The notes beneath the pieces were generated by a model. The model saw only the letters and a list, made by a program, of their open reading frames with translations, searched no databases and was not told where the DNA came from. DNA of 64,000 nt. Origin: an uncultured Lentisphaeraceae bacterium (GTDB lineage: Bacteria; Verrucomicrobiota; Kiritimatiellia; RFP12; DVOR01). Shown piece by piece: positions 4,664-49,854 of the stretch. Location: positions 1 to 64,000 of the forward strand of contig CASDPK010000021.1 in the NCBI GenBank assembly GCA_949282555.1. The letters are read 5' to 3'. Both the position numbers and the translations under genes were made by a program. Position 1 is the first letter of the stretch. Every line of letters begins with the position of its first letter.

Positions 4664-4672
4664 GGCGGACGT

Positions 4673-7677: not shown

Positions 7678-7716
7678 CCGCCGTCATGCCCCTTGCGCCG
7701 GCGGAAGGGATTGGGC

Positions 7717-7722: not shown

Positions 7723-7729
7723 CCGAAAC

Positions 7730-10077: not shown

Positions 10078-10664
10078 GAATCACCGGCGGACAATGGCGC
10101 GGGCGAACCCTGCTCATGCCCAAATCCGACGCCGTGCGCCCCACGCAAGACCGCGTGCGCGAAGCCCTCTTCGGCCTCCTTCAACCCGTCCTCCCCGGGG
10201 CCACGTTCCTTGACCTCTTCGCCGGCTCCGGGGCCGTGGGCTTGGAGGCCCTGAGCCGCGGCGCCCGCGAAGCCACCTTCCTGGAGCGCGACCGCACCGT
10301 CTTCACCACCCTCCTGCGCAACCTCGCGGCCTTCGGCGTGGAGGCCCACCATGCCCGCAACGCCGACACCCTGCGGCTCCTCGGCGTCGCCGCCGACGCC
10401 CCCGAAACGCCCCGCCGTCCGCTCCCCCTTGCCCTGCCTTCGGCGACGATCGTCTTTGCCGATCCGCCCTACCTTTGGGCCAAGGAAAATGGCTTCGGGG
10501 AACTGGCCAAAGCGCTCGTGGCCCATGGATTGCCGGAGCCGGGAGGCTTCCTTGTGGCGGAGTTCGACCACCGCACCGACCCGGAGCCCCTGCCCGGCTT
10601 CACCCTCTTGCGCGACCGCGCCTATGGCAAAACCCGCCTTGCCATTTGGCGGCGCGACGCCTAA
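10074..10664 (+). CDS. rsmD: 16S rRNA (guanine-966-N2)-methyltransferase RsmD
   Basis: RsmD methylates G966 of 16S rRNA on the assembled small subunit, using S-adenosylmethionine. The 196-residue protein starts MRITGGQWRGR, typical of the family. It carries DRVREALFGLL, the SAM-binding LDLFAGSGAVGLEALSRGA (near residues 43-61) and the catalytic DPPY motif (FADPPYLW). A proline-rich stretch around residues 105-120 is longer than in E. coli. The start ATG overlaps the preceding stop (ATGA). An intrinsic terminator follows at 10694-10732. Confidence 0.93.
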   Translation: MRITGGQWRGRTLLMPKSDAVRPTQDRVREALFGLLQPVLPGATFLDLFAGSGAVGLEALSRGAREATFLERDRTVFTTLLRNLAAFGVEAHHARNADTLRLLGVAADAPETPRRPLPLALPSATIVFADPPYLWAKENGFGELAKALVAHGLPEPGGFLVAEFDHRTDPEPLPGFTLLRDRAYGKTRLAIWRRDA

Positions 10665-10693
10665 CGCCCCAAGACCCTCCGTATCTCGACCCG

Positions 10694-10734
10694 CGAGGCT
10701 CCGTATCCCAATGAACGATACGGAGCCTCTCGTT
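10694..10734 (+). terminator. Intrinsic terminator after rsmD, within a dispersed repeat
   Basis: A perfect 13-bp inverted repeat, GAGGCTCCGTATC (10695-10707) and GATACGGAGCCTC (10717-10729), with a 9-nt loop, is followed by TCGTTTT. The left arm and the preceding CCGTATC copy belong to the same dispersed repeat seen at 36510 and 58759. Confidence 0.8.
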
Positions 10735-10961
10735 TTCACGCACCCTGCGCCCCGCCGCCGTCGGCCTCATGAAATATGTTAAACTGTTCCCAGTGACGGA
10801 GATTGGCATGGGAAGAGGCGAAGGCGAACCCTTGGGCGTCAAGGGGACAGATGCTCCTGCGACATTGCAAGGAACGACAGGAATGAAGCGTGAGGCGATG
10901 CCGAATGGGAGAGAAGATGCCTAAGCGTAGGCCCGTCTTTGCGTATTGAGGGAAACAACGT
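10735..10961. other. Intergenic region upstream of the small-gene operon
   Basis: About 230 bp with an AT-richer start (near 10770-10785) that may hold the promoter for the 10962 gene. A 51-codon frame at 10769-10924 has no ribosome-binding site and is not claimed as a gene. Confidence 0.4.
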
Positions 10962-11501
10962 ATGACCGACAATTTCAAGGTGTTGCATGAGCGCGTGGCG
11001 GCCAAGGTCTCCCGTCCGCTAAGCCTTTCCGATCCCGATGAGGATTTTCAGGCCCCTGTGGATTGCCGTTGGCGAGAGGAAACCGTGGCAAAGGCAGTGG
11101 AGGAGTTGTCCTCGACAGACCTCCAAATCATTTTTCAGAGTGTCATGCCCGCCGGGACATTTGAGGAGTGCCTCTATTATTATCCGTTTGCCTTGGAACG
11201 CTTTTCCCTTTCGTTGGCGCGGCCTCCCCAAGAGGAAATCAACGCGGATTTGTTGGACAATTTGTTGGCTTGGACGGTGCAAAACCAAAAGCGCTTGGAG
11301 GCGTATGGGCTCCTTCATCTCTCCATGAAGTGTATCCTCGACATCTACGCCCAACTGTTTGCGTGCAATCAGACGACGACTTGTGAGTGCCTTTTGGAAG
11401 TGACCCGATTCCTACGATACGTCGCCAAGCGACAATGGTATCACCTTGTCCCCCAACCCTCGTTGCCCTATCACAGCACAACCATTTGGAGACAAGATTG
11501 A
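10962..11501 (+). CDS. Unknown cytoplasmic protein, first gene of a five-gene operon
   Basis: A 179-residue protein I do not recognise. It is soluble and mostly helical by composition, with Leu/Glu-rich segments and no signal peptide or membrane span. A GAGG sequence sits about 10 nt before the ATG. Its codon use is less GC-rich than the housekeeping genes to its left. It is followed 64 bp later by four tightly overlapping small genes on the same strand, which suggests one transcript. The make-up (one soluble protein, two small membrane proteins, one lipoprotein, one soluble protein) is reminiscent of accessory immunity-type clusters, but this is only a guess. Confidence 0.7.
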   Translation: MTDNFKVLHERVAAKVSRPLSLSDPDEDFQAPVDCRWREETVAKAVEELSSTDLQIIFQSVMPAGTFEECLYYYPFALERFSLSLARPPQEEINADLLDNLLAWTVQNQKRLEAYGLLHLSMKCILDIYAQLFACNQTTTCECLLEVTRFLRYVAKRQWYHLVPQPSLPYHSTTIWRQD

Positions 11502-11565
11502 AACGTGTGGGGAAACGTGTCAGATTACACGAAGGAAAAGGCTCCGATGAAGTGAAGGGGCAGAA

Positions 11566-11847
11566 ATGAAATCGCTTTCCATCCTCTATGTCCTAATCGC
11601 GCTCCTTCTTTTGACGGTGTTTGGCCTCGTCCATACGGAGTGCTTCCCCTATCTTCTCGGGTCTCTCGCGTTGGGGTTCTGCCTGCCCAAGCTCGCCAAA
11701 ATCCCCCTTGTGATTGTCTTGTTCCTGACACTTCTGCTCGTGTTTTCGTCCCTCTTGGTCAAAGAGACGCATCATAAGGTCGAGATGACAAATGCGTGGC
11801 TCCGTTCCCTTCCGCACACGTCCAAAACCGTGGAGGAAAAACAATGA
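11566..11847 (+). CDS. Small unknown membrane protein
   Basis: A 93-residue, strongly hydrophobic protein with two to three predicted membrane helices (residues 3-24, 28-44 and 46-64) and a charged C-terminal tail of about 30 residues. I recognise no family. The ATG is preceded by AAGGGG. The stop overlaps the start of the next gene by ATGA, so it belongs to the same operon as its neighbours. Confidence 0.65.
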   Translation: MKSLSILYVLIALLLLTVFGLVHTECFPYLLGSLALGFCLPKLAKIPLVIVLFLTLLLVFSSLLVKETHHKVEMTNAWLRSLPHTSKTVEEKQ

Positions 11848-11990
11848 TGTTGCGCTGGGGGCTCCTACTGATCGGGTTTTCGGCGTCTGCCTACATCTGC
11901 GTTGTGGGGTCTCTCGAAGGCCAGCCGCTCTATGAGCCCCTGTTGCTCTTCCCTCTCTTTGCAATAGGCAATCGCTTGAGGCACCGATGA
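11844..11990 (+). CDS. Very small unknown membrane protein
   Basis: A 48-residue protein beginning MMLRWGLLLIGFSASAYICV, with one or two short hydrophobic helices and a basic C-terminus (NRLRHR). Its reality is supported mainly by context: the start overlaps the previous stop (ATGA) and its stop overlaps the next start (ATGA). GGAGG lies 8-12 nt upstream. No function can be proposed. Confidence 0.6.
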   Translation: MMLRWGLLLIGFSASAYICVVGSLEGQPLYEPLLLFPLFAIGNRLRHR

Positions 11991-12352
11991 AAAGACGTGT
12001 GGGAATCGGCATGGTTGCGGGGACGCTTTGGGGCCTATCGCTGGCTTTTGGATGTGCGCAGACGACCTATCAGACGTGCCCGGATGAGGCGGCGTTGTGC
12101 GCACAGCTCTTCGCATTGCGCAACGATTTGTTACGAGGCACTTATTATTGCGGAAGTGACGACGCATGGCACTATTTTAGGGTCAAACGCCAAATAGGGT
12201 TCTTTGTGTTTGAAGACGGCTTTAAAGCCCCTGCCGCAGTCGATCTGCCCTTTCCGCTCCAACCGAAAAGTGATGAACCCGATGCTTGGCTCGCCATTGA
12301 CGGCCATCTGACGGAGTGGATGGCGGAGGCGGACAAGGGAGGTCACAAGTGA
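11987..12352 (+). CDS. Unknown small lipoprotein
   Basis: A 121-residue protein with a basic start (MKRRVG), a hydrophobic stretch and a lipobox-like LAFGCAQ, so the mature protein probably begins at Cys23 and is lipid-anchored. Four Cys occur after the lipobox (CPDEAALC and YYCG among them), which may form disulfides outside the cytoplasm. It has no recognised domain. It overlaps both neighbours by 4 bp and is translationally coupled to them. Confidence 0.65.
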   Translation: MKRRVGIGMVAGTLWGLSLAFGCAQTTYQTCPDEAALCAQLFALRNDLLRGTYYCGSDDAWHYFRVKRQIGFFVFEDGFKAPAAVDLPFPLQPKSDEPDAWLAIDGHLTEWMAEADKGGHK

Positions 12353-12930
12353 CGACATCAGAATCCACCACTGAGTTGTGTTATTTGGAAGTGGATTTCC
12401 CGGAGCACGTCGTTGGGCTGCAAAAGAGGGTGTTGCGCAATCACCATGTCACCTTCGGGGAAACGCGCGACGGGAAACGCCCCTTCCTGTGCTGTGAGTG
12501 TGCGGATGTCGCCTCGCTTGAAGGGTGGCTTTCCGACGTGGAGACCTTGATCCGCTTGGCCAAACCCACGTGGCGACACCATGTTTGGCTCTCGCTTTAT
12601 CCGGAGAAGGATCGTTCGCATTGGATGCTTCCGAACGCCCTCTTGCACTTCCTTGCCCGCAAGCATTTGAGCCTCACGGTGTCCTTTACGGGCTGGGGAG
12701 ATGAGCGCTGTGGACAAAGGGAGGGAAGGATGCTTCAAGAGGTGCGCTATCGGGCGACACCGCGCGCGAAATCGGTGTGCGGTCTACGGAAGCCCATCTT
12801 GGAATGGATAGAACACATCACGCTCCGCACCTCAGCCGATAGCGATGGATACACGCTCTCGCCGAGGAAGTTGCGGCGGTTTTCCCGTGAGAACGCCGCG
12901 GTCATCGTTTCCATCCGCCGATATTCCTAA
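12349..12930 (+). CDS. Unknown soluble protein, last gene of small-gene operon
   Basis: A 193-residue protein of no family known to me. The start chosen is a GTG at 12349 that overlaps the preceding stop as GTGA, matching the spacing of the other operon members. It alternates hydrophobic strands with charged loops and contains a CCEC cluster near residue 45. It has no membrane span. The 3' end overlaps the convergent antiporter gene by 4 bp. The codon use resembles the other operon members, supporting a shared origin. Confidence 0.65.
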   Translation: MTTSESTTELCYLEVDFPEHVVGLQKRVLRNHHVTFGETRDGKRPFLCCECADVASLEGWLSDVETLIRLAKPTWRHHVWLSLYPEKDRSHWMLPNALLHFLARKHLSLTVSFTGWGDERCGQREGRMLQEVRYRATPRAKSVCGLRKPILEWIEHITLRTSADSDGYTLSPRKLRRFSRENAAVIVSIRRYS

Positions 12931-38062: not shown

Positions 38063-38817
38063 TTTTCAGAAATTATCACCCGATTCAAAGCGATAAGAAG
38101 TTTTATCGCTTCCTTGGCTTCAATCGAGAAATGATTTTTTAAATATTGGAGCATAATTCCATCCAATACTGGCAAGGAACATACTTTTTCCCATGTCTCC
38201 TTAGCGGTGGAATTGGGAAGACTTGAGGTGTCGACTTCGTTCAACCTCCGAAGCACCAACGCGTTAGATTTAAAAAACGGATTGTTGTCTGAATCCAATA
38301 TATATTCATTTCCAAGAACACTTCTGGCTTCTTCACAAGCGATGCCCTCTCTTATCTTTGGTAGGCAAACTGTCACTTTAAGAGCCGGGATGAATGTGTT
38401 AGACGAATTATTGACTCGTTTACTATCTGGATCTCCCAAAAAAAATTCCTCTTGGCAATCTCGTTCATTTAAGAAGGTTGTCACATAACTAATATTCACA
38501 GGATAAGTGCCATTTGCAAATACCAAAACGACTGGACTCAAGGAAATACCATCGCCCCTTATGCCCTGTGGGATATTGTCGACAAAACCTTCATTTGTTG
38601 GCCGTAATAACGTCAATCGATGAGGGACACCGGATTCCCACCAAACCTTTTTCGTCCTCCTCGTAAAAACGAAAACCGAAATATCCTTTGGAGGTATTTT
38701 TTGCCCAGAAGTTGTGTAACAGTCCAGTCGAATTGGACGATATGTAACATTCATACACCCCACGCACAATAAACACAAAATCAACATGGCATGACTTATA
38801 CTTCTCATTGTTCTCAT
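38023..38817 (-). CDS. Putative immunity lipoprotein for the lipase-like RHS tip
   Basis: A 264-residue AT-richer protein of unknown family with a lipobox (LILCLLCVGCMN, Cys near residue 21), so it is probably lipid-anchored and exported. If the adjacent IS is removed, the toxin frame ends AAATGA with this ATG inside, the same ATGA overlap as in the first RHS-immunity pair; this supports both the start at 38817 and the role as immunity protein. A second ATG three codons in (38808) has better AGGA spacing. The IS now separates it from any upstream promoter. The function is inferred from position only. Confidence 0.65.
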   Translation of the reverse strand: MRTMRSISHAMLILCLLCVGCMNVTYRPIRLDCYTTSGQKIPPKDISVFVFTRRTKKVWWESGVPHRLTLLRPTNEGFVDNIPQGIRGDGISLSPVVLVFANGTYPVNISYVTTFLNERDCQEEFFLGDPDSKRVNNSSNTFIPALKVTVCLPKIREGIACEEARSVLGNEYILDSDNNPFFKSNALVLRRLNEVDTSSLPNSTAKETWEKVCSLPVLDGIMLQYLKNHFSIEAKEAIKLLIALNRVIISEKADHAKKHFAVED

Positions 38818-39916
38818 TTCCTGTTCTTGATTTGTAGAATGTCAATAGATTTGCGCAGAGCGTTTGGGAAGAGTTGTAAAATACGCATGGGTTAGGAGAC
38901 CTTTTTTGGGGAGTGTGGGTAGTGGACGATGTGGAGAAGTTGGTGGATTTGGGGCAGTAGAGGCGCAGGAGGCGATTGTGGCGTTCAATGGAGCCTTTCT
39001 CCCAAGCACTGTAGGGATGGCAGTAGTAGATGGGGACTTGGAGGAGAGTTTCAAGTATGTCTTCATGGAGAAACTCTGAACCATTATCGGTGAGCATCGT
39101 CTTAAGTTCATGGCCGTTGGCGCGAAGGTCGCGACGAAAACGATGAAGCGCGGAGGTCACGGAGGCTTGAGAAATGGTTGGAAGGGCGTACATATAGAAG
39201 CGGCGGGGTGCTGTCGGATTGCCATAGTGGGGGTCGACAAGGGTGAGGATGCCACCGCGGCCACCGGAAGAATGGACGGTGTCCATCTGGAAATGTCCGG
39301 GTTCGGTGTGATGGCGCGCGGCAGGAGGGAGGTCGTCGATCATGTGCTTGGGGGCGTGGTTGCGAGGGACATCGGTGGAGGCGGGCTTGTGTTGGTTTTT
39401 CTTGTAACGCTTGTGGTTGAGAGGTTTGCCGTGTGCATCCCGAAGTTCGCCTTTGTCCATCAGGCGATAGACGGTGCTGCGACTGGGGAGATACGCGTTG
39501 GGCGAAGCCTCATGAAGCACCTTCAATGCGTAGGTGACGCTTTTCGTTTTTTCATATACCTTTGCAAAGTCTCGAACAAAGAAGTTTGAGACCTTGCCGC
39601 GGGGTCCTTTGTTGGCGTTGCGTCTTCGGGTCTCTTCCATGGCAAACCCCGGGTTTAGGTCGAAGTACTCCCACCGTTTTTGGTCGGGAAGATACCACGT
39701 CAACCGATCGGCGGTGGTTCCTTTTTTGAGGATGTATCTCACGGTTGAGGGTTTCTCTCCGATTGCTCGTGCGAACGCCCTGACAGAGGGCCTGGCAACG
39801 GATTTCCGATACGTGTTCCAACACCTGATGCACGCCTCCACGTCGGCTTTTCCGTTTTTGCGAATGTACGATTCTTGCGTTCGTTGCCTGCCAGAAGAAG
39901 TGATAGACTGTTGCAC
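38591..39916 (-). CDS. IS30-family transposase with disrupted C-terminus
   Basis: A DDE transposase of the IS30 family: helix-turn-helix-like N-terminus (RPSVRAFARAIGEKPSTVRYIL), then the catalytic triad in FQMDTVHSSGG, LTDNGSEF and SIERHNRLLR. The GTG start at 39916 is chosen because AAAGGAA lies nine bases upstream; the frame continues further up through non-coding IS sequence. After PKSTNFST the frame probably shifts at CCCCAAAAAAGG. A +1 reading gives PKKGLLTHAYF and ends at 38842, just inside the IS end, which looks like the native tail (compare PRKGLGY-type motifs). The uninterrupted frame instead runs through the IS end into the immunity gene. Confidence 0.8.
   Translation of the reverse strand: MQQSITSSGRQRTQESYIRKNGKADVEACIRCWNTYRKSVARPSVRAFARAIGEKPSTVRYILKKGTTADRLTWYLPDQKRWEYFDLNPGFAMEETRRRNANKGPRGKVSNFFVRDFAKVYEKTKSVTYALKVLHEASPNAYLPSRSTVYRLMDKGELRDAHGKPLNHKRYKKNQHKPASTDVPRNHAPKHMIDDLPPAARHHTEPGHFQMDTVHSSGGRGGILTLVDPHYGNPTAPRRFYMYALPTISQASVTSALHRFRRDLRANGHELKTMLTDNGSEFLHEDILETLLQVPIYYCHPYSAWEKGSIERHNRLLRLYCPKSTNFSTSSTTHTPQKRSPNPCVFYNSSQTLCANLLTFYKSRTGNENNEKYKSCHVDFVFIVRGVYECYISSNSTGLLHNFWAKNTSKGYFGFRFYEEDEKGLVGIRCPSSIDVITANK
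38820..38834. repeat. 15-bp direct repeat flanking the IS, left copy
   Basis: CCTGTTCTTGATTTG, identical to 40069-40083. It is interpreted as a target-site duplication. Most IS30 members duplicate 2-4 bp, but long duplications are known for some mycoplasma members. Confidence 0.85.
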
Positions 39917-40068
39917 GTCGTCGGTTCCTTTTTTGTGTGCGGCACATAGTGTGCCAAGAAAGGCCGACGACGTTTTTGTTTTTGGGCCGCGCCGCCCCCT
40001 AGGGGGCGCCCCCTCCGGGGGGCAGGAGGACGGGCTACGCCCCTCCCAATTACATTGTGGACGATTCA
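38835..40068 (-). mobile_element. IS30-like insertion sequence (1234 bp)
   Basis: Bounded by the 15-bp direct repeats. The ends show weak inverted similarity (minus-strand left end TGAATCGTCCACAATG against TAGAATGTCAATAG from the other side). Between the right end and the transposase start lies a GC-rich palindromic stretch (39993-40008, CGCCCCCTAGGGGGCG). The element sits exactly between a toxin gene and its putative immunity gene and converts the last toxin codon into a stop. Confidence 0.8.
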
Positions 40069-41373
40069 CCTGTTCTTGATTTGCGCATCAAGATGATTCC
40101 AAATATTCGTTATCATACCTTCCGCATTTTCATGCCGCGCGGACGTTGATAGATTGATGGTCGCACCTGATTCTTTCCCCCATTTACCACCCATCGAGGC
40201 GACCCAATCAGAAGCATTTTTCTCGAATGAGATCCATCCTAATGTTCCGCCAACAATTGTGGTTAATCCTGGAACTCCTGATGCAATGTCACCCACCCCT
40301 TTAGGAACATAAATATTAATCCACACATCCGTATCTTTAAGCGATGGGGCGGACGAAAGCGCCCCAACTGGATCAAGTGTGATTAACAGATCCAAACCGC
40401 GATTCTCATTTTCGTTTATAAAACCAAGCACTTCAGCTGCCGTTGCCCCCCCGAGACTATGTCCTATTATGACAAGTCGAGTACAATTACATTTTTTTAG
40501 ATATGAATTTATTTCCTCTGCAATCTGTTGACTGTTCTCTTTGCAGAATCGCCAATAGTAATAGGCAATCTTTGCGTCTGGGTAACGTTTGGCTATTACG
40601 TCATACACATCTTTCCCTACTCGTTCATGATTTTCATCTCCAAACCCTCCGATAAGAATTACCAAAGCTGGAGGGCAGTCATCTTTGGATTTGGGCGGAG
40701 ATCCGAGAGGCATTTCCTCTCTTAGCCCAAGAATATCGATGCACGAAACCGAATTGTTCGAACAAAACAAATACGTCTCAGGGAACAGACAATCCCGTCC
40801 GCTCCAACGTCCAAATATTGGCAAATAATGCCTAAAGTTATAGTAAAAAAGTCCAAGTTTCTCATCAAGCATTTCAGAGGAAAAGCGATAGGGATTGTCA
40901 GACCCCGAGGAGGCGGTAGGGGAGCCGCAAGGGGTGTAATCGTAATGGACAACGCTTCCTTGAAGATCCACGAGGTCGGAGACGTTTTTGTTACCGTCGT
41001 GGAAATAGTAGGAAAGGGTTCCGGAAACTGGCTGGAAGACGAGTGGGCGGGTAGCGATGGGTTCGGTGGGATCCCACACGTAGGAGTGGAAGAGGGCGTT
41101 GTCGGTGCCACGAAGTTGCTGGATGCAGAGGTAGTTGTCGTAGACAAAACGTTGGAGGGTTTCTTCGCCATCCTTCACTGTGCGCATTTCGACACGGCGG
41201 CCCATGCGGTCGAAGGCCATGGTGATCACGGTGTCGCCGGATTCCCAACGGATGGGGCGGTTTTCGGCATTGTAGGAGACTGACCAAATGCCGGTTTCGG
41301 TCTTGATGAGGGTTTGATTTCCTATCTCACTCATGCTCATGGGCACATGTATTCTGATATCGCCGTAGAGCAT
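40066..41373 (-). CDS. RHS cassette 3: partial RHS core with lipase-like toxin tip
   Basis: A 435-residue orphan RHS tip. Residues 10-200 repeat the end of the main RHS protein (NAENRPIRWESGDTVI, DNYLCIQQLRGTDNALFHSY, YFHDGNKNVSDLVD, NPYRFSSEM). The unique tip begins near residue 218, after IDILGL. It looks like an alpha/beta-hydrolase (lipase class 3-like): GHSLGG with nucleophile Ser306, then LITLDPVG (Asp343) and SARHENA (His414) as a likely triad. A phospholipase toxin is therefore plausible. The IS created the present stop; before insertion the protein ended QIKNRK. It has no promoter or export signal of its own. Confidence 0.8.
   Translation of the reverse strand: MLYGDIRIHVPMSMSEIGNQTLIKTETGIWSVSYNAENRPIRWESGDTVITMAFDRMGRRVEMRTVKDGEETLQRFVYDNYLCIQQLRGTDNALFHSYVWDPTEPIATRPLVFQPVSGTLSYYFHDGNKNVSDLVDLQGSVVHYDYTPCGSPTASSGSDNPYRFSSEMLDEKLGLFYYNFRHYLPIFGRWSGRDCLFPETYLFCSNNSVSCIDILGLREEMPLGSPPKSKDDCPPALVILIGGFGDENHERVGKDVYDVIAKRYPDAKIAYYYWRFCKENSQQIAEEINSYLKKCNCTRLVIIGHSLGGATAAEVLGFINENENRGLDLLITLDPVGALSSAPSLKDTDVWINIYVPKGVGDIASGVPGLTTIVGGTLGWISFEKNASDWVASMGGKWGKESGATINLSTSARHENAEGMITNIWNHLDAQIKNR
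40069..40083. repeat. 15-bp direct repeat flanking the IS, right copy
   Basis: Second copy of the 15-bp repeat; it encodes the QIKNR end of the lipase-tip protein. Confidence 0.85.
41323..41355. repeat. 33-bp in-frame insert, copy in RHS cassette 3
   Basis: A diverged copy of the unit, encoding IHVPMSMSEIG on the minus strand, close to the start of this cassette. Confidence 0.65.
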
Positions 41374-41378
41374 CAGCG

Positions 41379-42023
41379 TCAGAAATCATCGGGGTTAATC
41401 TCTTCTATATCAATCCATTTATCTAGATCAATCCAGTTGGTTAAATACAATTCGATATCCTCTTTCTTATCGCAAATAGCGCGCAAAAGAGAGAATAGTT
41501 CGAGGCCATTGGCATCCTCCTTAATTTGGAGAAAAACCTGTTCTACGTGATATTCTTCGAGCACTATCGCTATTTCTTCCGCCGACATTTTTCTTTTCCA
41601 TACCGCGGTCTGTTGGCATGTTCCGATCTCTCTTAAGATGAGTCCATCCTTCATAACATCGACAAGAATCATCATACGCCATGAAGCCCATCCTCCATAT
41701 CTCGGACAAATATCAAAGCGGAGTTTTTTATCCCCAACGCAGAGATAATTGCATGTATTCGCATCAGAAAGCTCCCACAACGCGCACAATAGGTTCGAAA
41801 TATCTTCTTTATAGTCAGTAAGCTTTACGGTATATTGATAATCGATGTAACCCTCATTCGGTGGAGGGGCGGACGCTTCCTTAATGCGTTTTAGCTGTTC
41901 TTCGACTTGTTGTCTTGGTTGTGACAGCGAGAGACGAACAGTTCGTGTACAGCAACTCGTAATAAAGAAGGCAACAAACCCCATCACAGCATAACGCAAA
42001 AGTTTCCTCAATATAACTTCCAT
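41379..42023 (-). CDS. Putative immunity lipoprotein for RHS cassette 2
   Basis: A 214-residue protein of unknown family, lying between toxin cassette 2 and cassette 3 on the same strand. The N-terminus MEVILRKLLRYAVMGFVAFFITSCC is a lipoprotein signal with a lipobox-like FITSCC. The ATG at 42023 has AAAGGAG eight bases upstream, better than the TTG at 42056. The mature part has a charged, coiled-coil-like start (QQVEEQLKRIKEAS) and a C-terminus rich in Asp/Trp. Its base composition is AT-rich like the toxin tips. The immunity role is inferred from its place directly after the toxin. Confidence 0.65.
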   Translation of the reverse strand: MEVILRKLLRYAVMGFVAFFITSCCTRTVRLSLSQPRQQVEEQLKRIKEASAPPPNEGYIDYQYTVKLTDYKEDISNLLCALWELSDANTCNYLCVGDKKLRFDICPRYGGWASWRMMILVDVMKDGLILREIGTCQQTAVWKRKMSAEEIAIVLEEYHVEQVFLQIKEDANGLELFSLLRAICDKKEDIELYLTNWIDLDKWIDIEEINPDDF

Positions 42024-42057
42024 AAATGGACTCCTTTGGGATTCGAAGTGGGTCAAA

Positions 42058-43872
42058 TTAAAATCGTTCAGGATACTTCATCCTAACTCTGTCCGTACTC
42101 CAATAAGAATCTTTCCTTCTCTCTTCTCCCTCGTAAATCACAATTTTAATCGGGCAAGGACAATCCGATCGATTGGCATACTTCACTTTGAGGGTATTAT
42201 AAAACTCTCTGTACATTTTAGCGTATGTATCCTTGGAACTTGTATGCCTTCCAATTATCCAAGAACCTGACGTTTTCTTTCGAACATGCGGACTCATATA
42301 ACACCCAAATAGGTTCTCATCTTTTACACAGCCAAAATCTTTGACATCTGTGACTGTTCCGTCATGCCATATGTCAAATCCTTCAACGATCTTTTCCTTT
42401 TTATGATCCTCCCAAACAAAGTCTCGTTCAGTGAAAAGATTATCATTAACCGTTATTCCGCCATGAGCGATCACAAAGACATTATCGGCATTACGTTGTG
42501 CTTCTCTGTATACGTCTTCACTTCCAAGCCTCGCGAGATCCCTAATCTCGATCTCGAAACACGTCCTTCCATTCGAATCTTTTTTTTTCTTCAATTCGTC
42601 AATCAAATCCCATACCTCAAGTGCTACTTCTTTGCCTGATCCCCACGATGAACCACTTCCAATTAATGCCCCCGTCAGCATTCGTGCAAGTCCAAGGATA
42701 TCAATTCCAAAAGGATTATTGTCCAAGAAAGTATAGAGCCGAAATGACTCGACTTCCCCCATTAGATCTCTCGTTACCCAACTGCCATATAGAGCATTAT
42801 AATGCCTATAATTATAGTAAGATAATCGTAATTCATCATCACACATTTCGGAAGAGAAGCGATAGGGATTCTCCGAAGGAGCGGAGGTAATGGAGGTGCC
42901 AAAGGGAGTGTAGGCGTAGTGAACAACGCTTCCGTGAGCATCCACGAGGTCGGAGACGTTTTTGTTGCCGTCGTGGAAGTAGTAGGAGAGCACACCGGAG
43001 GCGGGAAGGAAGATCAGTGGGCGGGTGGCGATGGGTTCGGTGGGATCCCAGATGTAGAAGTGGAAGAGGGCGTTATCGGCGCCACGGAGTTGCTGGATAC
43101 AAAGATAGTTGTCGTAGACGAAGCGTTGGAGGGTTTCTGCGCCATCCTTCACCGTGCGCATTTCGACACGTCGGCCCATACGGTCGAAGGACATGGTAAT
43201 CACCGTATCGCCGGATTGCCAGCGAATGGGGCGATTTTCGGCATTGTACAGAACCGACCAAATGCCGGTCTCGGTCTTGATGAGGGTCTGATTTCCCACC
43301 TCGCTCATGCTCGTGGGCGCATGTATTCCATCGTCGTCGTATTGGGGCGCGAAGTCGTCAATCGCCGTGTATTGATTAAGGTTGTTGGCGGTGTAGGTCT
43401 TGCCTTCGGCGGTCGTGCGGTTTCCCACCTCGCTTACGCTCGTGGGCGCATGTACTCCGATGTCGTCGTAGGCATAGGAAACTTCGTCTGCGGAAATCAG
43501 CTCATCGCGGGCGTTGTAACCATACTGCTCGTCATTCTTTGAGGTGCGGCGGCCGAGAAGGTCGTTGGTGTAAACGTAGGTGGAATAGGTGGCGTTGGTG
43601 ACGGCGGTGAGAAGGTCGCGGTGAGGTTCGTATGTCCATGTGACCACGGCGTCATTCGGATAGGTCAATTGAGACTTGAGGTTCGTTCCTGGCAAATACG
43701 TCCACTTGAAACCGTCGGATTCGGCGATGCGGCCGGTGGCGGAGTCATAGGTGATGGACCGCTTGCGTTCCCCATCGACGGAGTAGCCCACATTGCGACC
43801 GTAGGCATCCCAATGAAGGGTGAGGGTTTTATAGCCCTGTAGTTTAACTCGTTGCTCGGTTCGCCAACTCAT
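42058..43872 (-). CDS. RHS cassette 2: partial RHS core with unknown toxin tip
   Basis: A 604-residue orphan RHS tip without export signal. After a unique start (MSWRTEQRVKLQGY), residues 15-390 repeat the last YD-repeats and the RHS-associated core of the main protein with high nucleotide identity. The tip (209 residues) begins near residue 396, after IDILGL. It has a short Gly/Ser segment, then NVFVIAHGGITVND (His470) and NLFGCYMSPHVRK (Cys524), a His-Gly/Cys pair reminiscent of clan CD (caspase/CHAT) peptidases; this is a tentative idea. The tip DNA is much AT-richer than the core. Its putative immunity gene follows 34 bp later. Confidence 0.78.
   Translation of the reverse strand: MSWRTEQRVKLQGYKTLTLHWDAYGRNVGYSVDGERKRSITYDSATGRIAESDGFKWTYLPGTNLKSQLTYPNDAVVTWTYEPHRDLLTAVTNATYSTYVYTNDLLGRRTSKNDEQYGYNARDELISADEVSYAYDDIGVHAPTSVSEVGNRTTAEGKTYTANNLNQYTAIDDFAPQYDDDGIHAPTSMSEVGNQTLIKTETGIWSVLYNAENRPIRWQSGDTVITMSFDRMGRRVEMRTVKDGAETLQRFVYDNYLCIQQLRGADNALFHFYIWDPTEPIATRPLIFLPASGVLSYYFHDGNKNVSDLVDAHGSVVHYAYTPFGTSITSAPSENPYRFSSEMCDDELRLSYYNYRHYNALYGSWVTRDLMGEVESFRLYTFLDNNPFGIDILGLARMLTGALIGSGSSWGSGKEVALEVWDLIDELKKKKDSNGRTCFEIEIRDLARLGSEDVYREAQRNADNVFVIAHGGITVNDNLFTERDFVWEDHKKEKIVEGFDIWHDGTVTDVKDFGCVKDENLFGCYMSPHVRKKTSGSWIIGRHTSSKDTYAKMYREFYNTLKVKYANRSDCPCPIKIVIYEGEERRKDSYWSTDRVRMKYPERF
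43297..43329. repeat. 33-bp in-frame insert, RHS cassette 2 copy a
   Basis: Encodes IHAPTSMSEVG on the minus strand, splitting the expected DDG/NQTL core motif. Nearly identical to 45703-45735. Confidence 0.85.
43426..43458. repeat. 33-bp in-frame insert, RHS cassette 2 copy b
   Basis: Encodes VHAPTSVSEVG, splitting DDIG/NRTT. The main RHS gene has the uninterrupted DDIGNRTT at the same place (near 45830), showing directly that this is an insertion. Confidence 0.9.
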
Positions 43873-43875
43873 AAT

Positions 43876-43932
43876 ACCTTAATATCATGCAACTGCAATA
43901 TTCAATTACGAAATGTTTTTGACACGATCCAC
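43876..43932. repeat. Shared junction sequence of RHS cassettes, copy 2
   Basis: Partner of 38006-38062. It lies between the end of the first immunity gene and the start of cassette 2. Confidence 0.65.
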
Positions 43933-43936
43933 CGCA

Positions 43937-44596
43937 TTATCGGACATCAATGATAGTTCTAGAAAGAACATGCCCCAGTTTAAACTCTTCCAACTGAGGA
44001 AGATCGTGAAGATTGTGAAAATCGGACATTATGTTTCCTTTATCTAATAATGAGAGAACTTCACTTGGGGACGCGTATGTAAGCGTAGTAATATCTCCTC
44101 CGGCGCATGATACAACGGTAATCCTTGAAGTTATCTTGATATATTCTCTAGGCTCTACAACACACACTTTCTCCTTCCCATTCTCTTCAAATGAAAATGA
44201 AAATCCATTAAAGCCTACTTGGAGCATTTTTCCGACATCCTTTCTTGAAAAGAGAAAGATGAAGAAAGACATATATGGCGCATTCTTTTTGGGGATATAT
44301 CGATAAAAAAGAAACGAAGAATCAGAAGTATATGCCTCATTCATGCGTTGCAAAATATCTAATATGGTTTCCTTGTTGAGAACGGGAGAGAAACTCATAA
44401 TAGCACCGTGCAACCCTTCACTCAATTTTCCGATAACTGTTGGTGGAATGTAACTAATCCACCCTTTTTCCGAATTAAAACTAAACGACGCATCAAGAGA
44501 AATATATGCAATTACGTCAGGTTGCCGTATCTCATAGCATATGTAGATAAAAAAACTAATGGCGATGATCGTGGCAAAATAGGTACGTCTTTTCAT
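43937..44596 (-). CDS. Putative membrane-anchored immunity protein for the main RHS toxin
   Basis: A 219-residue AT-rich protein of unknown family. It begins with a single membrane helix (YFATIIAISFFIYICYE, residues 6-22), so most of it should face the periplasm. Aromatic and Ser-rich strands follow (GKEKVCVVEPREYIKITSR). The start overlaps the RHS stop as ATGA, which strongly suggests co-expression and a toxin-immunity pair. No catalytic motif is visible. It is followed by the junction repeat and cassette 2. Confidence 0.7.
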   Translation of the reverse strand: MKRRTYFATIIAISFFIYICYEIRQPDVIAYISLDASFSFNSEKGWISYIPPTVIGKLSEGLHGAIMSFSPVLNKETILDILQRMNEAYTSDSSFLFYRYIPKKNAPYMSFFIFLFSRKDVGKMLQVGFNGFSFSFEENGKEKVCVVEPREYIKITSRITVVSCAGGDITTLTYASPSEVLSLLDKGNIMSDFHNLHDLPQLEEFKLGHVLSRTIIDVR

Positions 44597-47500
44597 TTAA
44601 AATCCTCCTTGGCACAACGATGCGTATATGAAATTTCATCAGTGGCTAATATCGTAGACTTCTCTGAAATGCTTCTATCAACTGAACCGCCTCCGAAAGA
44701 GAATCCTAAAATAACGTTACTCGTCTTCACAATATTAATTTTATGAATACTAGTTCCTAGAACAGAACCATCTTCGTTTATGACTACCTCTATTTCTGAC
44801 CCACTCCCATCTATCACCTGATCCACATTAATTGACACTCCGACAGGGCCAGCACTTATGCCCAATCCTCTGCCATTACCATTATCAGAAAGAAATCTTC
44901 TGGCCACGACGTTTATGCCCGCTCGTACTACACGCTTCCCATTCTTGCATAAACATTTGCCCCATGTTACATATTCCACTTCCGCAATATAGTTATTCGG
45001 GACTCGATGCCGAACGCCACTGCCTGGTAACATCGGAATCTTTCCTAATACAATATCTCGTTCACCATCTTGAAATGGGATTTGTTTTTTTAACAGTCCA
45101 AGCCAATCAAATTGAAATGGGGAATTGGAAACAAAGGAAAATAAATTAACTCCATCCAATTCCCCTATTGGGTCTTTACTACACCACCTTCCGTTGTTGG
45201 GTTGATAATGACGGTAATTATAGTATGTAAGGCCTAATGTCTCATTGAAGTATTCCGAAGAGAAACGATACGGATTTTCGGAAGGGCTCGAAGCCATGGG
45301 AACACCAAAAGGTGTGTAATCATAGTGTACGAAGGCTCCAGAGAGACACACAAGGTCAGAGACGTTTTTGTTACCGTCGTGGAAATAATAGGCGATTTCA
45401 CCCGCTGAAGAGATGAAAACCAGCGGACGGGTGGCGATGGGTTCCGTGGGATCCCAAATGTAGGAGTGGAAGAGGGCGTTGTCGGTGCCACGAAGTTGCT
45501 GGATGCAGAGGTAGTTGTCGTAGACGAAGCGTTGGAGGGTTTCTGCGCCATCCTTCACCGTACGCATTTCGACACGTCGGCCCATACGGTCGAAGGCCAT
45601 CGTAATCATGGTGTCGCCGGATTGCCAACGGATGGGGCGGTTTTCGGCATTGTACAGAACCGACCAAATGCCGGTCTCGGTCTTGATGAGGGTCTGATTT
45701 CCCACCTCGCTCATGCTCGTGGGCGCATGTATTCCATCGGCGTCGTATTGTGGCGCGAAGTCATCGATGGCGGTGTATTGGTTGAGGTTGTTGGCGGTGT
45801 AGGTCTTGCCTTCGGCGGTGGTACGATTGCCGATGTCGTCGTAGGCATAGGAAACTTCGTCTGCGGAAATCAGTTCATTGCGGACGTTGTAGCCGTACTG
45901 CTCGTCGTTCTTCGAGGTTCGGCGACCAAGGAGATCATTGGTGTAGACGTACGTGGAATAGGTGGCGTTGGTGACGGCGGTGAGGAGGTCGCGGTGGGGT
46001 TCGTAACTCCATGTGACCACGGCCTCATTGGGATAGGTGAGTTTAGACTTGAGATTGGAACCCGCGAGGTAGTCCCACGCAAAGCCATCGGACTCGGCGA
46101 TGCGGCCGGTGGCGGAGTCATAGGTGATGGACTGCTTGCGTTCCCCATCGACGGAGTAGCCCACATTGCGACCGAAGGCATCCCAATGAAGGGTGAGGGT
46201 TTTGGCGTAGAGACCGCTTACTTGTTCGACCGTGCGTTGGCCGAAGGCATCATAGGTGAAGGTGGTGGTGCCGACGGCATCGGTGGCGGAGATTCGGCGG
46301 CCCATGGCGTCGTAGGTATAGGCAATGTCGGGCGTGGTGTCGGCGTAGTCCACCGAGAGGAGTTGCCCCCAAGCGTCGTAAGTATAGGTTGTGACGATGT
46401 TGCGGGCGTTGGTGCGGGTGGCGAGTTGGCCATTGTTCGTGTAGGTGTAGGTCAGGCCCTTGCCGTCGGCGTAGGTCTTGGCGAGGAGAACTCCCGAGGC
46501 TTCGTCGTACGTCCACGTGGTGGTGTCGCCCACACCGGAGGCCTCGTTGCGATAGGTCGTCATGGAGGTCTTGTTGCCGAAGACGTCGTAGGTGTAGCGG
46601 ACAGGATAGGTGGCGCCGCCTTCGTAGGTCTTGTTGCCCCGCAAATCATACTCGTAGGTTATGACATTGCCGAGGGCATTGGTGACGGCGACGGTCTGCC
46701 CCATCACGTCGTAACCGTAGGCCGTGACGGCGCCGACGGCATCGGTGACTGACATGAGGTTTCCTTTGGCATCGTAGGCAGAAACGGTGCGGTTGTTGCG
46801 GCCATCAATGGCGGCCACGCGACGGTCGAGCGCATCGTACTCAAAACGGTTGGTCACACAGGCCGTATCCACCGTCTCGACCAACTGACCGAAGGCATAA
46901 CGCTCAATCTGCGGGTTCGAGCAGGAGGGTACCTGTGTGGTGCGCTGGGTGTCGTTGCCAAAGGTGCGGGTCTCGTTGCCGCGGATGTCCACGATAATTT
47001 GGTTGAAGGTATTGGAAACCGAGAGACCGGAGAGCTGGGTATAAACCGTTTGCGTCAAGGGCGCAATGTCCGCATCGGAGCACGACTGCACGGCGGTTTG
47101 TTTCTGCCACACGTTACCATCGCGCAAAAGATACTCCGCTTCGCTCTGCTGTTTGCGCCACACCTCACCGACCGTCTGCGTGAGGGCGGTTTGCTCGCCC
47201 ATCACATCATAGGCATAGGATTGCACGGGCTGACCCGTCTCACTGATTTGGCTTGTGCGCCCATAACTGTCATAGGCCATCGACGTTTCCAGCGTGGAAC
47301 CATTCGCCCCGGAGCGGGTTTGGCGGAGGGTCTGGCCGAGGAGATTCTGTTCCGTCTTCTGCCAACGCGCTCCCGTGGCGACGCGCTCCCACAGGGGGCC
47401 GTAGGTGACCGCCTGCGGCTGGACAGCGGTGCCGGAGAGTTCAAGGAGACGACCGATGGCGTCCGTCTTGCGGATCTGTGTACCACCATTCGGGAAGGTG

Positions 47501-49854
47501 GTGGTGACGGTGCGACCATCAAGGCCATAGGTGGTCAGTGTGATAGCGCCGCGGATGTCGGTTTGGGAGATGACTTGGCCAAAGACATCATAGGCAACCG
47601 TTTCGGGATTGAGGCCATCCTTCCATGTTTTCACCGCGCGACCGAGGGCGTCATATTCAAAATGCGTGGTGCAGGGAATCGGATCAAGCTTGGTTTCGGC
47701 GATGAGGCGGCCCTCATCGTCGTAGGTGTAGGTGAAGCGGGTGCCGTCAGGGAGCGTCATGGAGGACTTGCCGCAACAGTTGCCACCCCAAACAATCGTC
47801 GTCACACGCCCCGCGAAGTCAGTCTCTTGGAGGAGGTGACCTTCGCTGTCGTACACATACAGGAGACGGTCGATGAGGTGCCACACACCGTCGATGAAGG
47901 CTTCCTGGTTGCGCTCAATGATATTGCCCACGCGGTCGTAGAGGATGTTGTTGCGCAGGGTCTTTCCCGAGACGGGCTCGGGGGCCTCCTCGTGCAGGAA
48001 AGTCACCGTCTTCTTCCAAATCTCCCCCTCCACAAGCGCGTAGGCATAGAGCTCCAGCCGCCCATCCTCATGACGGATGGACTTCAGGCGGCCCGCGCAG
48101 TAGGGCGTTTCATCGTCCGGCGCATACCACGTCTTCACGGTGCGCAGGGCGCCCGCCGCGCCATAAGCCGCCCCCGCCGTGGCGGCGCGTTCATGGATCT
48201 CCTGCGTGGGCAAATACGCCCAATAGGAGCGCACCACCTCCACCTGCTCCCCGCTCTCCGGGTCGCGCTCCGTGACGACCACGCACCGCGGGCGCGTGTC
48301 GCGGAGCGACGTGCGATCGCCTTCCGCAACGGGCGCATAGGAGGTCGTCGTCACACGCGCTTCCACCGTGCCATCCCCTTCGGCCTCGCGGATCACGCGC
48401 GCGAGCCCGTCATAGGCGAAGGTCGTCACCTTCCCGGTGTAGGCCGTGGCCTTGGAGACCTTGCCCTTGGCCGGGCCGCTCATCACATATTCCCAACGGT
48501 TCGTGCGGGCGACGTCCGCCGCCCCCGTCACCTCCCAAATGCCCTCCGCCGTCCAATGCTTCATGTAGCCGCCCCACGGCGCCTCCGTGAGATAGGTCTT
48601 CCGCATCGAAAGCACCCTCCCCTGCGCATCCTTCACGGTCTTGCCGATCATCGCATTCTCATCGTCCCCATACATCATCTCCTTCATCTCCTCCACCCCG
48701 GAGGGGCGCGTCAGCGTCCAGTCGTTCCCCACATACACATAGCGGAAGAGCCGCGCATCCCCCGTGCCCTTGCGCACCGTCACGTTCAGATGGCGGTCAT
48801 CCTCCCCCCGCGCCACGGTCAACGTCTCGATCGGCGACACCCCCGCGGGCGGCACATACACCCCCTCCCCGAAGGCCGGCGACGCCGTCAGCGGATAAAC
48901 CTTCACCGTATACGACGTCTCCCCCTCCATCACAATGTCGGCCAAGCGGGAAGGCGTCACCACCTGCCGCAACAGCCCATTGCTTCCGCGAAGGATCTCC
49001 ACCCCAAACTCCGCCGCCGTGATGACCCGTCCCCGAGGGTCGGTGTAGGAGACCAAGTCCCCCAGCCGCCCCGTGACATCCGTGGCGTAGAACCGCCACA
49101 CCGAGCCATCCCCCGGATAAAGGTCGTAATAGGCCGGATCCTCCGCCGTCGCCCAGCCCTCCGCATCCACCATCTGCACCCGCTCATCCAGCTCCACATG
49201 CACCCCCGGGTCCGGAATGCCCAGCGATTCGCCCTCCCCAAAGACAAACCGGATCGGCTCCCCCTGCGCCTGATTGAAGAGCACCGCCGCCGGCACCCCC
49301 TTGGACGTGCGGCCAGACCCCAACGCATTGAAGCTATACCCCATGACCACCCGAAGCTCCTCCGGCGTGAAGAGCGCCGGGCTCGCCGTGGACGTGTAAA
49401 TCCGGAGCGAAATCCCCCGGCTGTCCGACATCACCGAGGCCCGCCCCAACGGGATTGTCACCTGCACACACCCATTCTCGACGCTCGACCCGCCGGGGGC
49501 GGAGGAGGCCCCCATGCCTCCGATGGAAGACGATGCCCCCGTCTTCACGTTCATATCAGGCCCTCGAGAACTTGCCCTTCCGCCCGGAAACCCCACGCCC
49601 ACGTTCTCCGGTTGCGGCCCGGCGTTTGTACAATCGCATTGATTGCACGGTGTCTGCCCCGGGCCGTCCCCGCATTCCGACGGCGGATTCCGCAAAACCG
49701 AAGGATCGGCCCACACCGAACCCACGGCAAGCCCCAAGGCCCCAACATCCACCAAACCTTTGATGTCGCGCTCATCATCGACCAACCTTTCGCTCTGCGC
49801 GTCCCAAGGCAAACACCCTTCAAGCCAACGACTGTTCACCCATAACGTGCGCAA
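44593..49854 (-). CDS. Full-length RHS/YD-repeat polymorphic toxin
   Basis: A 1753-residue RHS protein, which forms a hollow beta-cocoon that delivers a C-terminal toxin. The N-terminus (TTG 49854, uncertain) has a hydrophobic stretch GLVDVGALGLAVGSVWA that may be a signal, then a Cys/Gly-rich linker. Residues about 120-600 hold N-terminal RHS strands, and about 600-1480 many YD repeats (YDALGRAV, YDVFGQVI, YDAMGRRI). The RHS-associated core ends near FQFDWLGL (about 1588), after which comes a 166-residue tip of unknown type, rich in Gly/Val, with a CLCKNGKRVVRAGINVVARR segment. A TATACT -10 box lies at 49886. The immunity gene overlaps its stop. Confidence 0.88.
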   Translation of the reverse strand: MRTLWVNSRWLEGCLPWDAQSERLVDDERDIKGLVDVGALGLAVGSVWADPSVLRNPPSECGDGPGQTPCNQCDCTNAGPQPENVGVGFPGGRASSRGPDMNVKTGASSSIGGMGASSAPGGSSVENGCVQVTIPLGRASVMSDSRGISLRIYTSTASPALFTPEELRVVMGYSFNALGSGRTSKGVPAAVLFNQAQGEPIRFVFGEGESLGIPDPGVHVELDERVQMVDAEGWATAEDPAYYDLYPGDGSVWRFYATDVTGRLGDLVSYTDPRGRVITAAEFGVEILRGSNGLLRQVVTPSRLADIVMEGETSYTVKVYPLTASPAFGEGVYVPPAGVSPIETLTVARGEDDRHLNVTVRKGTGDARLFRYVYVGNDWTLTRPSGVEEMKEMMYGDDENAMIGKTVKDAQGRVLSMRKTYLTEAPWGGYMKHWTAEGIWEVTGAADVARTNRWEYVMSGPAKGKVSKATAYTGKVTTFAYDGLARVIREAEGDGTVEARVTTTSYAPVAEGDRTSLRDTRPRCVVVTERDPESGEQVEVVRSYWAYLPTQEIHERAATAGAAYGAAGALRTVKTWYAPDDETPYCAGRLKSIRHEDGRLELYAYALVEGEIWKKTVTFLHEEAPEPVSGKTLRNNILYDRVGNIIERNQEAFIDGVWHLIDRLLYVYDSEGHLLQETDFAGRVTTIVWGGNCCGKSSMTLPDGTRFTYTYDDEGRLIAETKLDPIPCTTHFEYDALGRAVKTWKDGLNPETVAYDVFGQVISQTDIRGAITLTTYGLDGRTVTTTFPNGGTQIRKTDAIGRLLELSGTAVQPQAVTYGPLWERVATGARWQKTEQNLLGQTLRQTRSGANGSTLETSMAYDSYGRTSQISETGQPVQSYAYDVMGEQTALTQTVGEVWRKQQSEAEYLLRDGNVWQKQTAVQSCSDADIAPLTQTVYTQLSGLSVSNTFNQIIVDIRGNETRTFGNDTQRTTQVPSCSNPQIERYAFGQLVETVDTACVTNRFEYDALDRRVAAIDGRNNRTVSAYDAKGNLMSVTDAVGAVTAYGYDVMGQTVAVTNALGNVITYEYDLRGNKTYEGGATYPVRYTYDVFGNKTSMTTYRNEASGVGDTTTWTYDEASGVLLAKTYADGKGLTYTYTNNGQLATRTNARNIVTTYTYDAWGQLLSVDYADTTPDIAYTYDAMGRRISATDAVGTTTFTYDAFGQRTVEQVSGLYAKTLTLHWDAFGRNVGYSVDGERKQSITYDSATGRIAESDGFAWDYLAGSNLKSKLTYPNEAVVTWSYEPHRDLLTAVTNATYSTYVYTNDLLGRRTSKNDEQYGYNVRNELISADEVSYAYDDIGNRTTAEGKTYTANNLNQYTAIDDFAPQYDADGIHAPTSMSEVGNQTLIKTETGIWSVLYNAENRPIRWQSGDTMITMAFDRMGRRVEMRTVKDGAETLQRFVYDNYLCIQQLRGTDNALFHSYIWDPTEPIATRPLVFISSAGEIAYYFHDGNKNVSDLVCLSGAFVHYDYTPFGVPMASSPSENPYRFSSEYFNETLGLTYYNYRHYQPNNGRWCSKDPIGELDGVNLFSFVSNSPFQFDWLGLLKKQIPFQDGERDIVLGKIPMLPGSGVRHRVPNNYIAEVEYVTWGKCLCKNGKRVVRAGINVVARRFLSDNGNGRGLGISAGPVGVSINVDQVIDGSGSEIEVVINEDGSVLGTSIHKINIVKTSNVILGFSFGGGSVDRSISEKSTILATDEISYTHRCAKEDFK
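45240..46203. repeat. RHS core block duplicated in cassettes 2 and 3
   Basis: This ~960-bp block at the end of the RHS core is repeated with high nucleotide identity at 42838-43833 (cassette 2), and its last part at 40862-41337 (cassette 3). Identity falls off sharply at the toxin tips, the usual pattern when tips are exchanged by homologous recombination. Confidence 0.85.
45703..45735. repeat. 33-bp in-frame insert, main RHS copy
   Basis: Encodes IHAPTSMSEVG between YDADG and NQTLIKTETG. On the coding strand CATGC and GCATG form a short inverted repeat around GCCCACGA. Confidence 0.85.

What the first reader, a model, noticed from the sequence alone, without database searches (positions are those of the whole stretch)
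10962..12930. Five-gene operon of unknown small proteins joined by 4-bp overlaps
Four junction overlaps or near-overlaps (ATGA, ATGA, GTGA after a 64-bp gap) link two tiny membrane proteins, a lipoprotein and two soluble proteins, none of which I recognise. The composition differs from the flanking core genes. The tight coupling suggests one envelope-associated complex.
Basis: partly seen in the sequence, partly recalled or inferred. Interest (0 to 1): 0.5.

Follow-up and report, generated by a model that had tools for sequence, protein, structure and literature searches.

The report
Probable orphan Rhs-toxin immunity genes
The five small genes look like a stockpile of antidotes against toxins that related gut bacteria make, kept without the matching toxin, rather than the parts of one molecular machine.

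Summary
In detail: five same-strand ORFs, a 64-bp gap, then three 4-bp overlaps, 52-58% GC between genes of 65-70%. None has a credible match in Pfam, NCBIfam, PADLOC or PHROGs. "One complex" does not hold: the five were nowhere found together again.

The genome is a Kiritimatiellae gut bacterium of the genus that holds Ca. Spyradenecus faecavium. Relatives of B, C and D lie behind an Rhs ORF in one genome (G008). D's relative follows an intact Rhs tip by 3 nt in G015; in G007 the tip is missing between ~99%-identical flanks while D stays; in G008 only a stub remains. Relatives of A adjoin Rhs ORFs in two genomes. Elsewhere, 5 of 15 tested neighbours of A or D relatives resemble genes directly behind Rhs tips. 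E has no credible relative. The window genome lacks D's toxin.

Best explanation: a heterogeneous polyimmunity (orphan immunity) locus against Rhs toxins. The kind is known; these families are absent from the libraries searched, and a 2012 survey did not list extended loci in this phylum (PMC3482391). Protection is untested.

The parts
10962..11501 (+). Gene A, 179 aa, soluble; shortened member of an LSDP/FQ-PAG family (complete members about 220-290 aa). Proposed cytoplasmic orphan immunity protein; may have lost its C-terminal part
   Evidence: Family profile: 9 of 161 order genomes, also Victivallales/Lentisphaeria and Akkermansia; Rhs-adjacent in L046 and L033; model of a full-length relative mostly helical, pLDDT 88.6; A itself aligns mainly to profile positions 2-109
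11566..11847 (+). Gene B, 93 aa, about 2 TM segments; proposed membrane immunity protein, paired with C
   Evidence: About 62% identical homologue in G008:C6, downstream of an Rhs ORF and followed directly by the C homologue; codon pattern of a coding gene
11844..11990 (+). Gene C, 48 aa, 1 TM segment; partner of B
   Evidence: 58% identical homologue directly after B in G008:C6
11987..12352 (+). Gene D, 121 aa, lipoprotein-like; orphan relative of the gene that directly follows an Rhs tip in G015
12349..12930 (+). Gene E, 193 aa, soluble, no credible relative; part of the locus by position only
   Evidence: single-sequence model poor, pLDDT 43.9
10665..10961 (.). Left flank; no Rhs core and no Rhs-like DNA found
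38591..49854 (-). The window's own Rhs locus, over 25 kb away: full-length Rhs (44593-49854) and two orphan Rhs tips (42058-43872; 40066-41373, lipase-like), with small genes behind the first two (43937-44596, 41379-42056). Context, not part of the island

Best explanation
The locus is a heterogeneous polyimmunity (orphan immunity) island. It makes, probably from one message with translational coupling, several unrelated antidotes to C-terminal toxin tips of Rhs proteins of related or neighbouring bacteria. D would be a periplasm-facing lipoprotein that neutralises an Rhs tip of the kind found in G015; B and C small membrane proteins; A (and perhaps E) cytoplasmic binding proteins. Each would bind and block its own incoming toxin, so the genes need not interact with each other. 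The island arose by loss of toxin parts and transfer of immunity genes. SHOWN: gene structure; Rhs linkage of relatives of A, B/C and D; absence of the tip with D kept in G007 and G008; no relative of that tip in the window genome as held (94% complete); flanking genes not adjacent in relatives. INFERRED: toxicity of the tips, neutralisation, co-transcription, protein locations, and the role of E.
For: (1) D family: in G015 the D homologue starts 3 nt after the stop of an Rhs ORF. G007 has 98.98% identity over 978 bp (D, the next gene and the last 37 bp of the tip gene) and 98.6% over 147 bp of Rhs core, but lacks the 515 bp between, i.e. nearly all of the tip. G008 has 98.4% identity over 434 bp: D plus the last 74 bp of the tip gene. 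The tip is intact in 1 of 161 order genomes (G015), a 35-residue stub with stops in G008, and not found in G000. (2) B-C: adjacent in G008:C6, 2.0 and 2.3 kb behind an Rhs ORF, with D in the same stretch. (3) A family: behind an Rhs ORF in Akkermansia L046 and 188 nt before an Rhs core remnant in G009/L033. (4) Neighbours: of 15 neighbours of A/D relatives tested, 5 have a homologue in another locus whose frame opens within 7 nt of the end of an Rhs-core ORF (E 9.5e-188, 1.5e-63, 1.4e-12, 1.8e-5, 3.9e-6; two of them share one target). Control at the looser limit of 300 nt: 1 of 94 mechanical ORFs, of which 61 had any hit; that one looks like a dispersed repeat. (5) Behind 64 Rhs-core ORFs with a following ORF, 45 have GC of 0.50 or less, 44 of these are 320 aa or shorter, and 33 of the 45 have a TM segment or lipobox by a simple script: the same kind of gene as B-D. 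(6) Patchy distribution, tandem A copies in G008 and a broken A copy in G000:C5.
Against: No protection shown. E has no relatives. The D copies of G007, G008 and G015 are one recent lineage, so the strongest case is a single linkage. Relatives of A-E are rare among Rhs loci: profile searches of 30 further stretches fetched around Rhs cores of the genus (L149-L178) found none. Only 2 of the 20 A loci have an Rhs core in the DNA held; the two Victivallales/Lentisphaeria copies read sit between ordinary genes, which suits a resident gene as well. The D copies of G003 and G006 have no Rhs core in the 15-kb stretches around them. Ten of 15 neighbours show no such Rhs link elsewhere. The window's A lacks much of the family's C-terminal part. 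The window's D is only about 50% identical to the tip-paired D, so its specificity may differ. No recombinase is among the 10 flanking proteins scanned.
Confidence: 0.72

Rival explanations
1. One envelope-associated complex or pathway: A-E act together.
For: Tight coupling; B, C and D predicted at the envelope. B-C do travel together.
Against: A, B/C, D and E have different distributions and were not found again as a set; relatives of A, B/C and D are tied to Rhs loci.
Confidence: 0.07
2. A decaying graveyard: former immunity genes without present function.
For: A is shortened against its family; a second A copy in G000:C5 is in fragments; the G008 tip is a stub.
Against: Five intact ORFs, four of them overlapping, with start contexts; codon-position pattern of selection in B, C and D since the split from G008.
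Confidence: 0.12
3. Cargo genes of a phage or other mobile element, for example surface exclusion or anti-phage defence.
For: Low GC and a synteny break; small membrane proteins are common in such cargo (recalled).
Against: No hits in PADLOC; one weak row for B and none for the others in PHROGs; no plasmid or viral-contig relative of D, the only gene tried there; no flanking repeat that stands out.
Confidence: 0.06
4. Accessory partners of Rhs proteins other than immunity (export, maturation or anchoring helpers) that were left behind.
For: Linkage to Rhs ORFs alone cannot separate the two; several are envelope proteins and some Rhs proteins of the genus look Sec-exported.
Against: The downstream genes differ from tip to tip (by eye), as expected for immunity genes and not for a common helper; the gene is present where the tip is missing.
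Confidence: 0.1

Closest known systems
Heterogeneous polyimmunity loci (Zhang et al. 2012, PMC3482391; section 39 read, other parts as passages)
   Same: Tandem, same-strand, closely spaced genes for structurally unrelated immunity proteins without a toxin gene between them; content varies between relatives.
   Different: None of A-D has a credible Pfam match (that Pfam holds many Imm families is recalled). That section lists extended loci (4 or more genes) only in certain proteobacteria, bacteroidetes, firmicutes and actinobacteria; this is a Kiritimatiellae genome.
[quoted passage not shown]
   Same: Clusters of orphan immunity genes, divergent from cognate ones, in gut bacteria.
   Different: No recombinase among the flanking proteins scanned; no T6SS sheath gene found in the genus (0 of 17); no SUKH match.
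Orphan immunity arrays of Vibrio cholerae T6SS clusters (PMC5361080, passages read)
   Same: Effector replaced or lost, immunity gene retained: what G015, G007 and G008 suggest for D.
   Different: Here the array lies apart from the toxin locus, and no T6SS was found.
Orphan Rhs immunity of Serratia Db10 (PMC10539506, passages read)
   Same: An orphan relative of an Rhs immunity gene; there protection was shown experimentally.
   Different: T6SS-delivered Rhs and an immunity gene within the rhs locus.

Membership tests
Heterogeneous polyimmunity locus | Genes in one orientation with small intergenic distances | tested here: met
   64-bp gap and three 4-bp overlaps
Heterogeneous polyimmunity locus | Not interrupted by toxin genes or toxin cassettes | tested here: met
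   No Rhs core and no Rhs-like DNA in 10600-13050; nearest core at 40.7 kb
Heterogeneous polyimmunity locus | The genes encode unrelated immunity proteins | tested here: inconclusive
   Rhs linkage for relatives of A, B/C and D, none for E; neutralisation not testable here
Heterogeneous polyimmunity locus | Content differs between close relatives | tested here: met
   None of 14 relatives carries A-E in the flanks fetched around rsmD; D neighbours differ among G003/G006, G007/G015 and G008
rAID system | Adjacent recombinase gene | tested here: not met
   10 flanking proteins between 4.7 and 21.3 kb scanned, none a recombinase; a weak rve match lies at 38.6-40.1 kb in the Rhs locus
rAID system | Orphan immunity to T6SS effectors | tested here: inconclusive
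   VipB sheath gene in 0 of 17 genus genomes, E. coli control positive, but attackers from outside the genus are not excluded
Known anti-phage defence system | Match to a known defence family | tested here: not met
   PADLOC: 0 families for all five
Rhs polymorphic toxin cassette (toxin plus cognate immunity) | Rhs core and toxin tip upstream of the immunity gene | tested here: not met
   Not found in the island; the G015 tip has no match in G000. The island would work like the immunity half only

The most novel reading that the evidence does not exclude
Gut Kiritimatiellae fight with Rhs toxins that are exported by Sec, not by a T6SS. They exchange envelope-located antidotes (lipoproteins, one- and two-TM proteins), which collect in stand-alone islands. 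The LSDP/FQ-PAG family of gene A would be a helical immunity family spread over Verrucomicrobiota, from Rhs-linked copies to resident genes in Victivallales.
Probability: 0.35. Interest if true: 0.6.

Novelty: new member of a known kind. Interest (0 to 1): 0.42.

Why it matters
It turns five 'unknown' genes into a testable prediction of antidote function and gives protein families absent from the libraries searched a proposed role. It shows an Rhs tip missing in two genomes while the gene behind it is kept at 98-99% DNA identity. It also points to T6SS-independent Rhs conflict in uncultured gut Verrucomicrobiota; the listings of my paper searches showed no paper on that, though PMC3482391 does list verrucomicrobia among holders of several immunity families.

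Tried and rejected
Family libraries: nothing above cut-off for A-E in Pfam, NCBIfam or PADLOC, and only one weak row (B, E 0.034) in PHROGs; members of the A and D families also had nothing above cut-off in Pfam. Weak rows such as OppC_N, DUF6178, GNAT_like and yidC were rejected as below cut-off. PDB sequence searches: A profile no match; D profile 8 rows, the best on a 13-14-residue stretch of repeat or designed proteins, rejected; E two rows at E 0.39-0.94, rejected; the G015 tip none.

Folds: the model of a full-length A relative (not of the window's own A) gave no Foldseek match at E below 0.001; VIA-align gave Z up to 6.8, mostly to HEAT/TOG-like proteins, within what helical models without a clear match give by the tool's own note, so only 'mostly helical, perhaps HEAT-like' is kept. 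The E model (pLDDT 43.9) was not searched.

E: 6 genomes besides G000 of 345 at E 0.01 or less, all local matches, three of them with stops: treated as chance. D: besides the six genus genomes, 9 more of 161 at E up to 0.1, best 9.4e-5 in G004: not used.

The Rhs tip of G015 shows Cys/His motifs that remind me of papain-like/NlpC enzymes; this is recalled and untested (no Pfam match), so not claimed.

Repeats, promoters and terminators: nothing that stands out; promoter-like sites 2 against 0.8 expected, neither upstream of A. Plasmids and viral contigs: no D relative. A DNA comparison of the island with all loci held found only the B and D matches.

Full report
OBSERVATION. B-C and C-D overlap by ATGA and D-E by GTGA; A-B has a 64-bp gap. 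A purine-rich stretch precedes each start (by eye). GC is 0.52-0.58 against 0.65-0.70 in rsmD, nhaC and ileS. E ends tail to tail with nhaC, overlapping it by 4 nt. Flanking genes are ordinary: Ppx/GppA, polyphosphate kinase, ADP-ribosylglycohydrolase, PdxA, an RsmD-like methyltransferase (Cons_hypoth95), a Na+/H+ antiporter, a class I tRNA synthetase, a class IV aminotransferase and an adenylosuccinate-lyase-like protein; one of the 10 scanned had no match.

WHERE IT IS. The window lies on contig C21 of a 2.43-Mb draft genome, 94% complete. Named relatives of gene A come from Kiritimatiellae MAGs, Victivallales/Lentisphaeria and Akkermansia records. The record of Candidatus Spyradenecus faecavium (L033) holds the same A locus, on a contig of the same length, as G009, which is of the window's genus. 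In the genus, rsmD is found in 15 of 17 genomes and nhaC in 12 of 17. In the 10 relatives with both, they lie on different contigs in 9 and about 400 kb apart in 1. rsmD keeps pdxA upstream in 13 of 14 relatives, and none of these carries A-E or nhaC in the flanks fetched, up to about 1.5 kb. The island thus sits at a synteny break; draft contigs limit this.

NOT ONE UNIT. A family: 9 of 161 genomes of the order. D: 15 of 161 at E up to 0.1, of which 6, all in the genus and G000 included, are at E below 1e-30. B: G000 and G008 of 17, besides one row at E 0.14. E: nothing credible in 345 genomes of the class.

THE RHS LINK, GENE D. In G015 (L080) an Rhs ORF ends at 7474 and the D homologue begins 3 nt later. 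In G007 (L081) the same DNA, 98.98% identical over 978 bp on one side and 98.6% over 147 bp on the other, lacks the 515 bp between, nearly all of the tip. The last 37 bp of the tip gene are still there, which speaks for a deletion in G007 rather than an insertion in G015. In G008 (L079) a 434-bp piece, 98.4% identical, carries the D homologue and only the last 74 bp of the tip gene. The tip as a query finds G015 intact, G008 as a 35-residue stub with stops, and no other match at E 0.01 or less in 161 genomes, G000 included. So in two of three genomes the tip is missing and the D gene is kept. These three copies are one recent lineage, and I count them as one case of linkage with different outcomes.

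THE RHS LINK, GENES B, C AND A. B and C homologues (62% and 58%) lie 2.0 and 2.3 kb behind the Rhs ORF of G008:C6. An A homologue in Akkermansia L046 lies behind an Rhs ORF; its ATG is 341 nt after the end of that ORF, whose tip region is broken into several frames. In G009/L033 an Rhs core remnant without a tip lies 188 nt after A. Of the 20 loci these are the only two with an Rhs core in the DNA held. Several other copies lie at or near contig ends, where Rhs repeats could have broken the assembly; that is a guess.

THE RHS LINK, NEIGHBOURS. I searched 15 neighbours of A and D relatives against 807,612 bases of loci (size). Five have a homologue in another locus whose frame opens within 7 nt of the end of an Rhs-core ORF: G003's 312-aa gene (E 9.5e-188, same genome), G006's 447-aa gene (1.5e-63), two G014 membrane proteins (1.4e-12 and 1.8e-5, one target) and G015's 124-aa gene (3.9e-6). 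Of the other ten, three (L033_1698, L033_2117, L079_178) lie behind an Rhs ORF in their own locus and seven show no such place. Control: 94 mechanical ORFs from the window and from the rsmD/nhaC flanks; 61 have any hit (own locus included) and 1 has a hit within 300 nt behind an Rhs-core ORF; it looks like a dispersed repeat. So even unlinked D copies (G003, G006) and one A copy (G014) sit beside Rhs-linked gene types.

THE RHS LINK, LIMITS. Thirty further stretches around Rhs cores of the genus (L149-L178) hold no relative of A-E by profile or sequence search. The families here are thus a small part of the immunity repertoire. Behind 64 Rhs-core ORFs that have a following ORF (longest one taken mechanically), 45 have GC of 0.50 or less, 44 of those are 320 aa or shorter, and 33 of the 45 have a TM segment or lipobox (rows).

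DELIVERY. Rhs cores above cut-off occur in 12 of 17 genus genomes; the T6SS sheath gene VipB in 0 of 17, with the E. coli control positive. Of 9 Rhs ORFs over 1000 aa printed, three (L157, L160, L164) show a signal-peptide-like N-terminus by eye; the window's own shows a candidate inside its open frame, four are cut off by the stretch fetched, and L149 shows none. I infer Sec export. The window has its own Rhs locus at 38.6-49.9 kb.

STRUCTURE. A full-length A relative folds with confidence (pLDDT 88.6, pTM 0.85) into helices with one hairpin; solved-structure matches are weak (no Foldseek match below E 0.001; Z at most 6.8). The window's A covers mainly the N-terminal half of the family profile (positions 2-109), so it may be shortened. 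E's model is not usable.

INTERPRETATION. The anatomy fits the heterogeneous polyimmunity locus of Zhang et al. 2012 (PMC3482391, section 39 read): one orientation, small gaps, no toxin between, unrelated proteins, variable content. I do not file it as a rAID system, because no recombinase was found beside it. Confidence by gene, as judgement: D 0.85, B-C 0.65, A 0.65, E 0.4. What the sequence cannot show is that any of them neutralises a toxin.

AGAINST. E is unexplained; A's family also has apparently resident copies in Victivallales/Lentisphaeria (L034 and L042 read); the strongest case is one lineage; most Rhs loci lack these families; the window's D differs by half its residues from the tip-paired one.

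LITERATURE. Searches for orphan immunity/acquired interbacterial defence, Rhs with Kiritimatiell- (one paper, whose passages concern a large extracellular protein), Spyradenecus, polymorphic toxin with Verrucomicrobi- and immunity protein, Akkermansia with Rhs and immunity, polyimmunity and Rhs with Verrucomicrobi- and orphan: from the listings (20 of 93, 1 of 1, 2 of 2, 5 of 5, 10 of 12, 5 of 5 and 4 of 4 papers shown) I found no description of such a locus in this group. The library is limited to open-licence papers.

Noticed in passing
window 38591-49854 (-): A complete Rhs locus: full-length Rhs, two orphan tips (one with a Lipase_3 match, 26.9 bits over a cut-off of 22), small low-GC genes behind two tips, and a transposase-like ORF (weak rve, below cut-off) at the end.
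   Followed up: partly
G000:C5:23809-24056 (L052 about 7786-8057): A second, broken copy of gene A's family in the same genome, as two short fragments.
   Followed up: partly
L083 7010-10685 (G003:C7) and L082 5348-7675 (G006:C2): Arrays of low-GC, mostly lipoprotein-like genes with a D relative; the G003 array includes a close relative of a gene that overlaps the end of an Rhs ORF elsewhere in the same genome.
   Followed up: partly
L034, L035, L037, L039, L042-L044, about 10000-10660 (L042 5357-6019): A close-knit set of A-family copies in Victivallales/Lentisphaeria and rumen records; in the two loci read (L034, L042) the neighbours are ordinary. It may be a resident gene.
   Followed up: no
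window 2501-3500 and 19001-20000: Two further dips in GC (to 0.53 and 0.56) that were not explained.
   Followed up: no
L168 about 4662-4877, L175 about 7602-7817, L141 about 3575-4024: What looks like a dispersed repeat whose translation reads like VRLTNVPIPCVS, found near Rhs core remnants and elsewhere.
   Followed up: no
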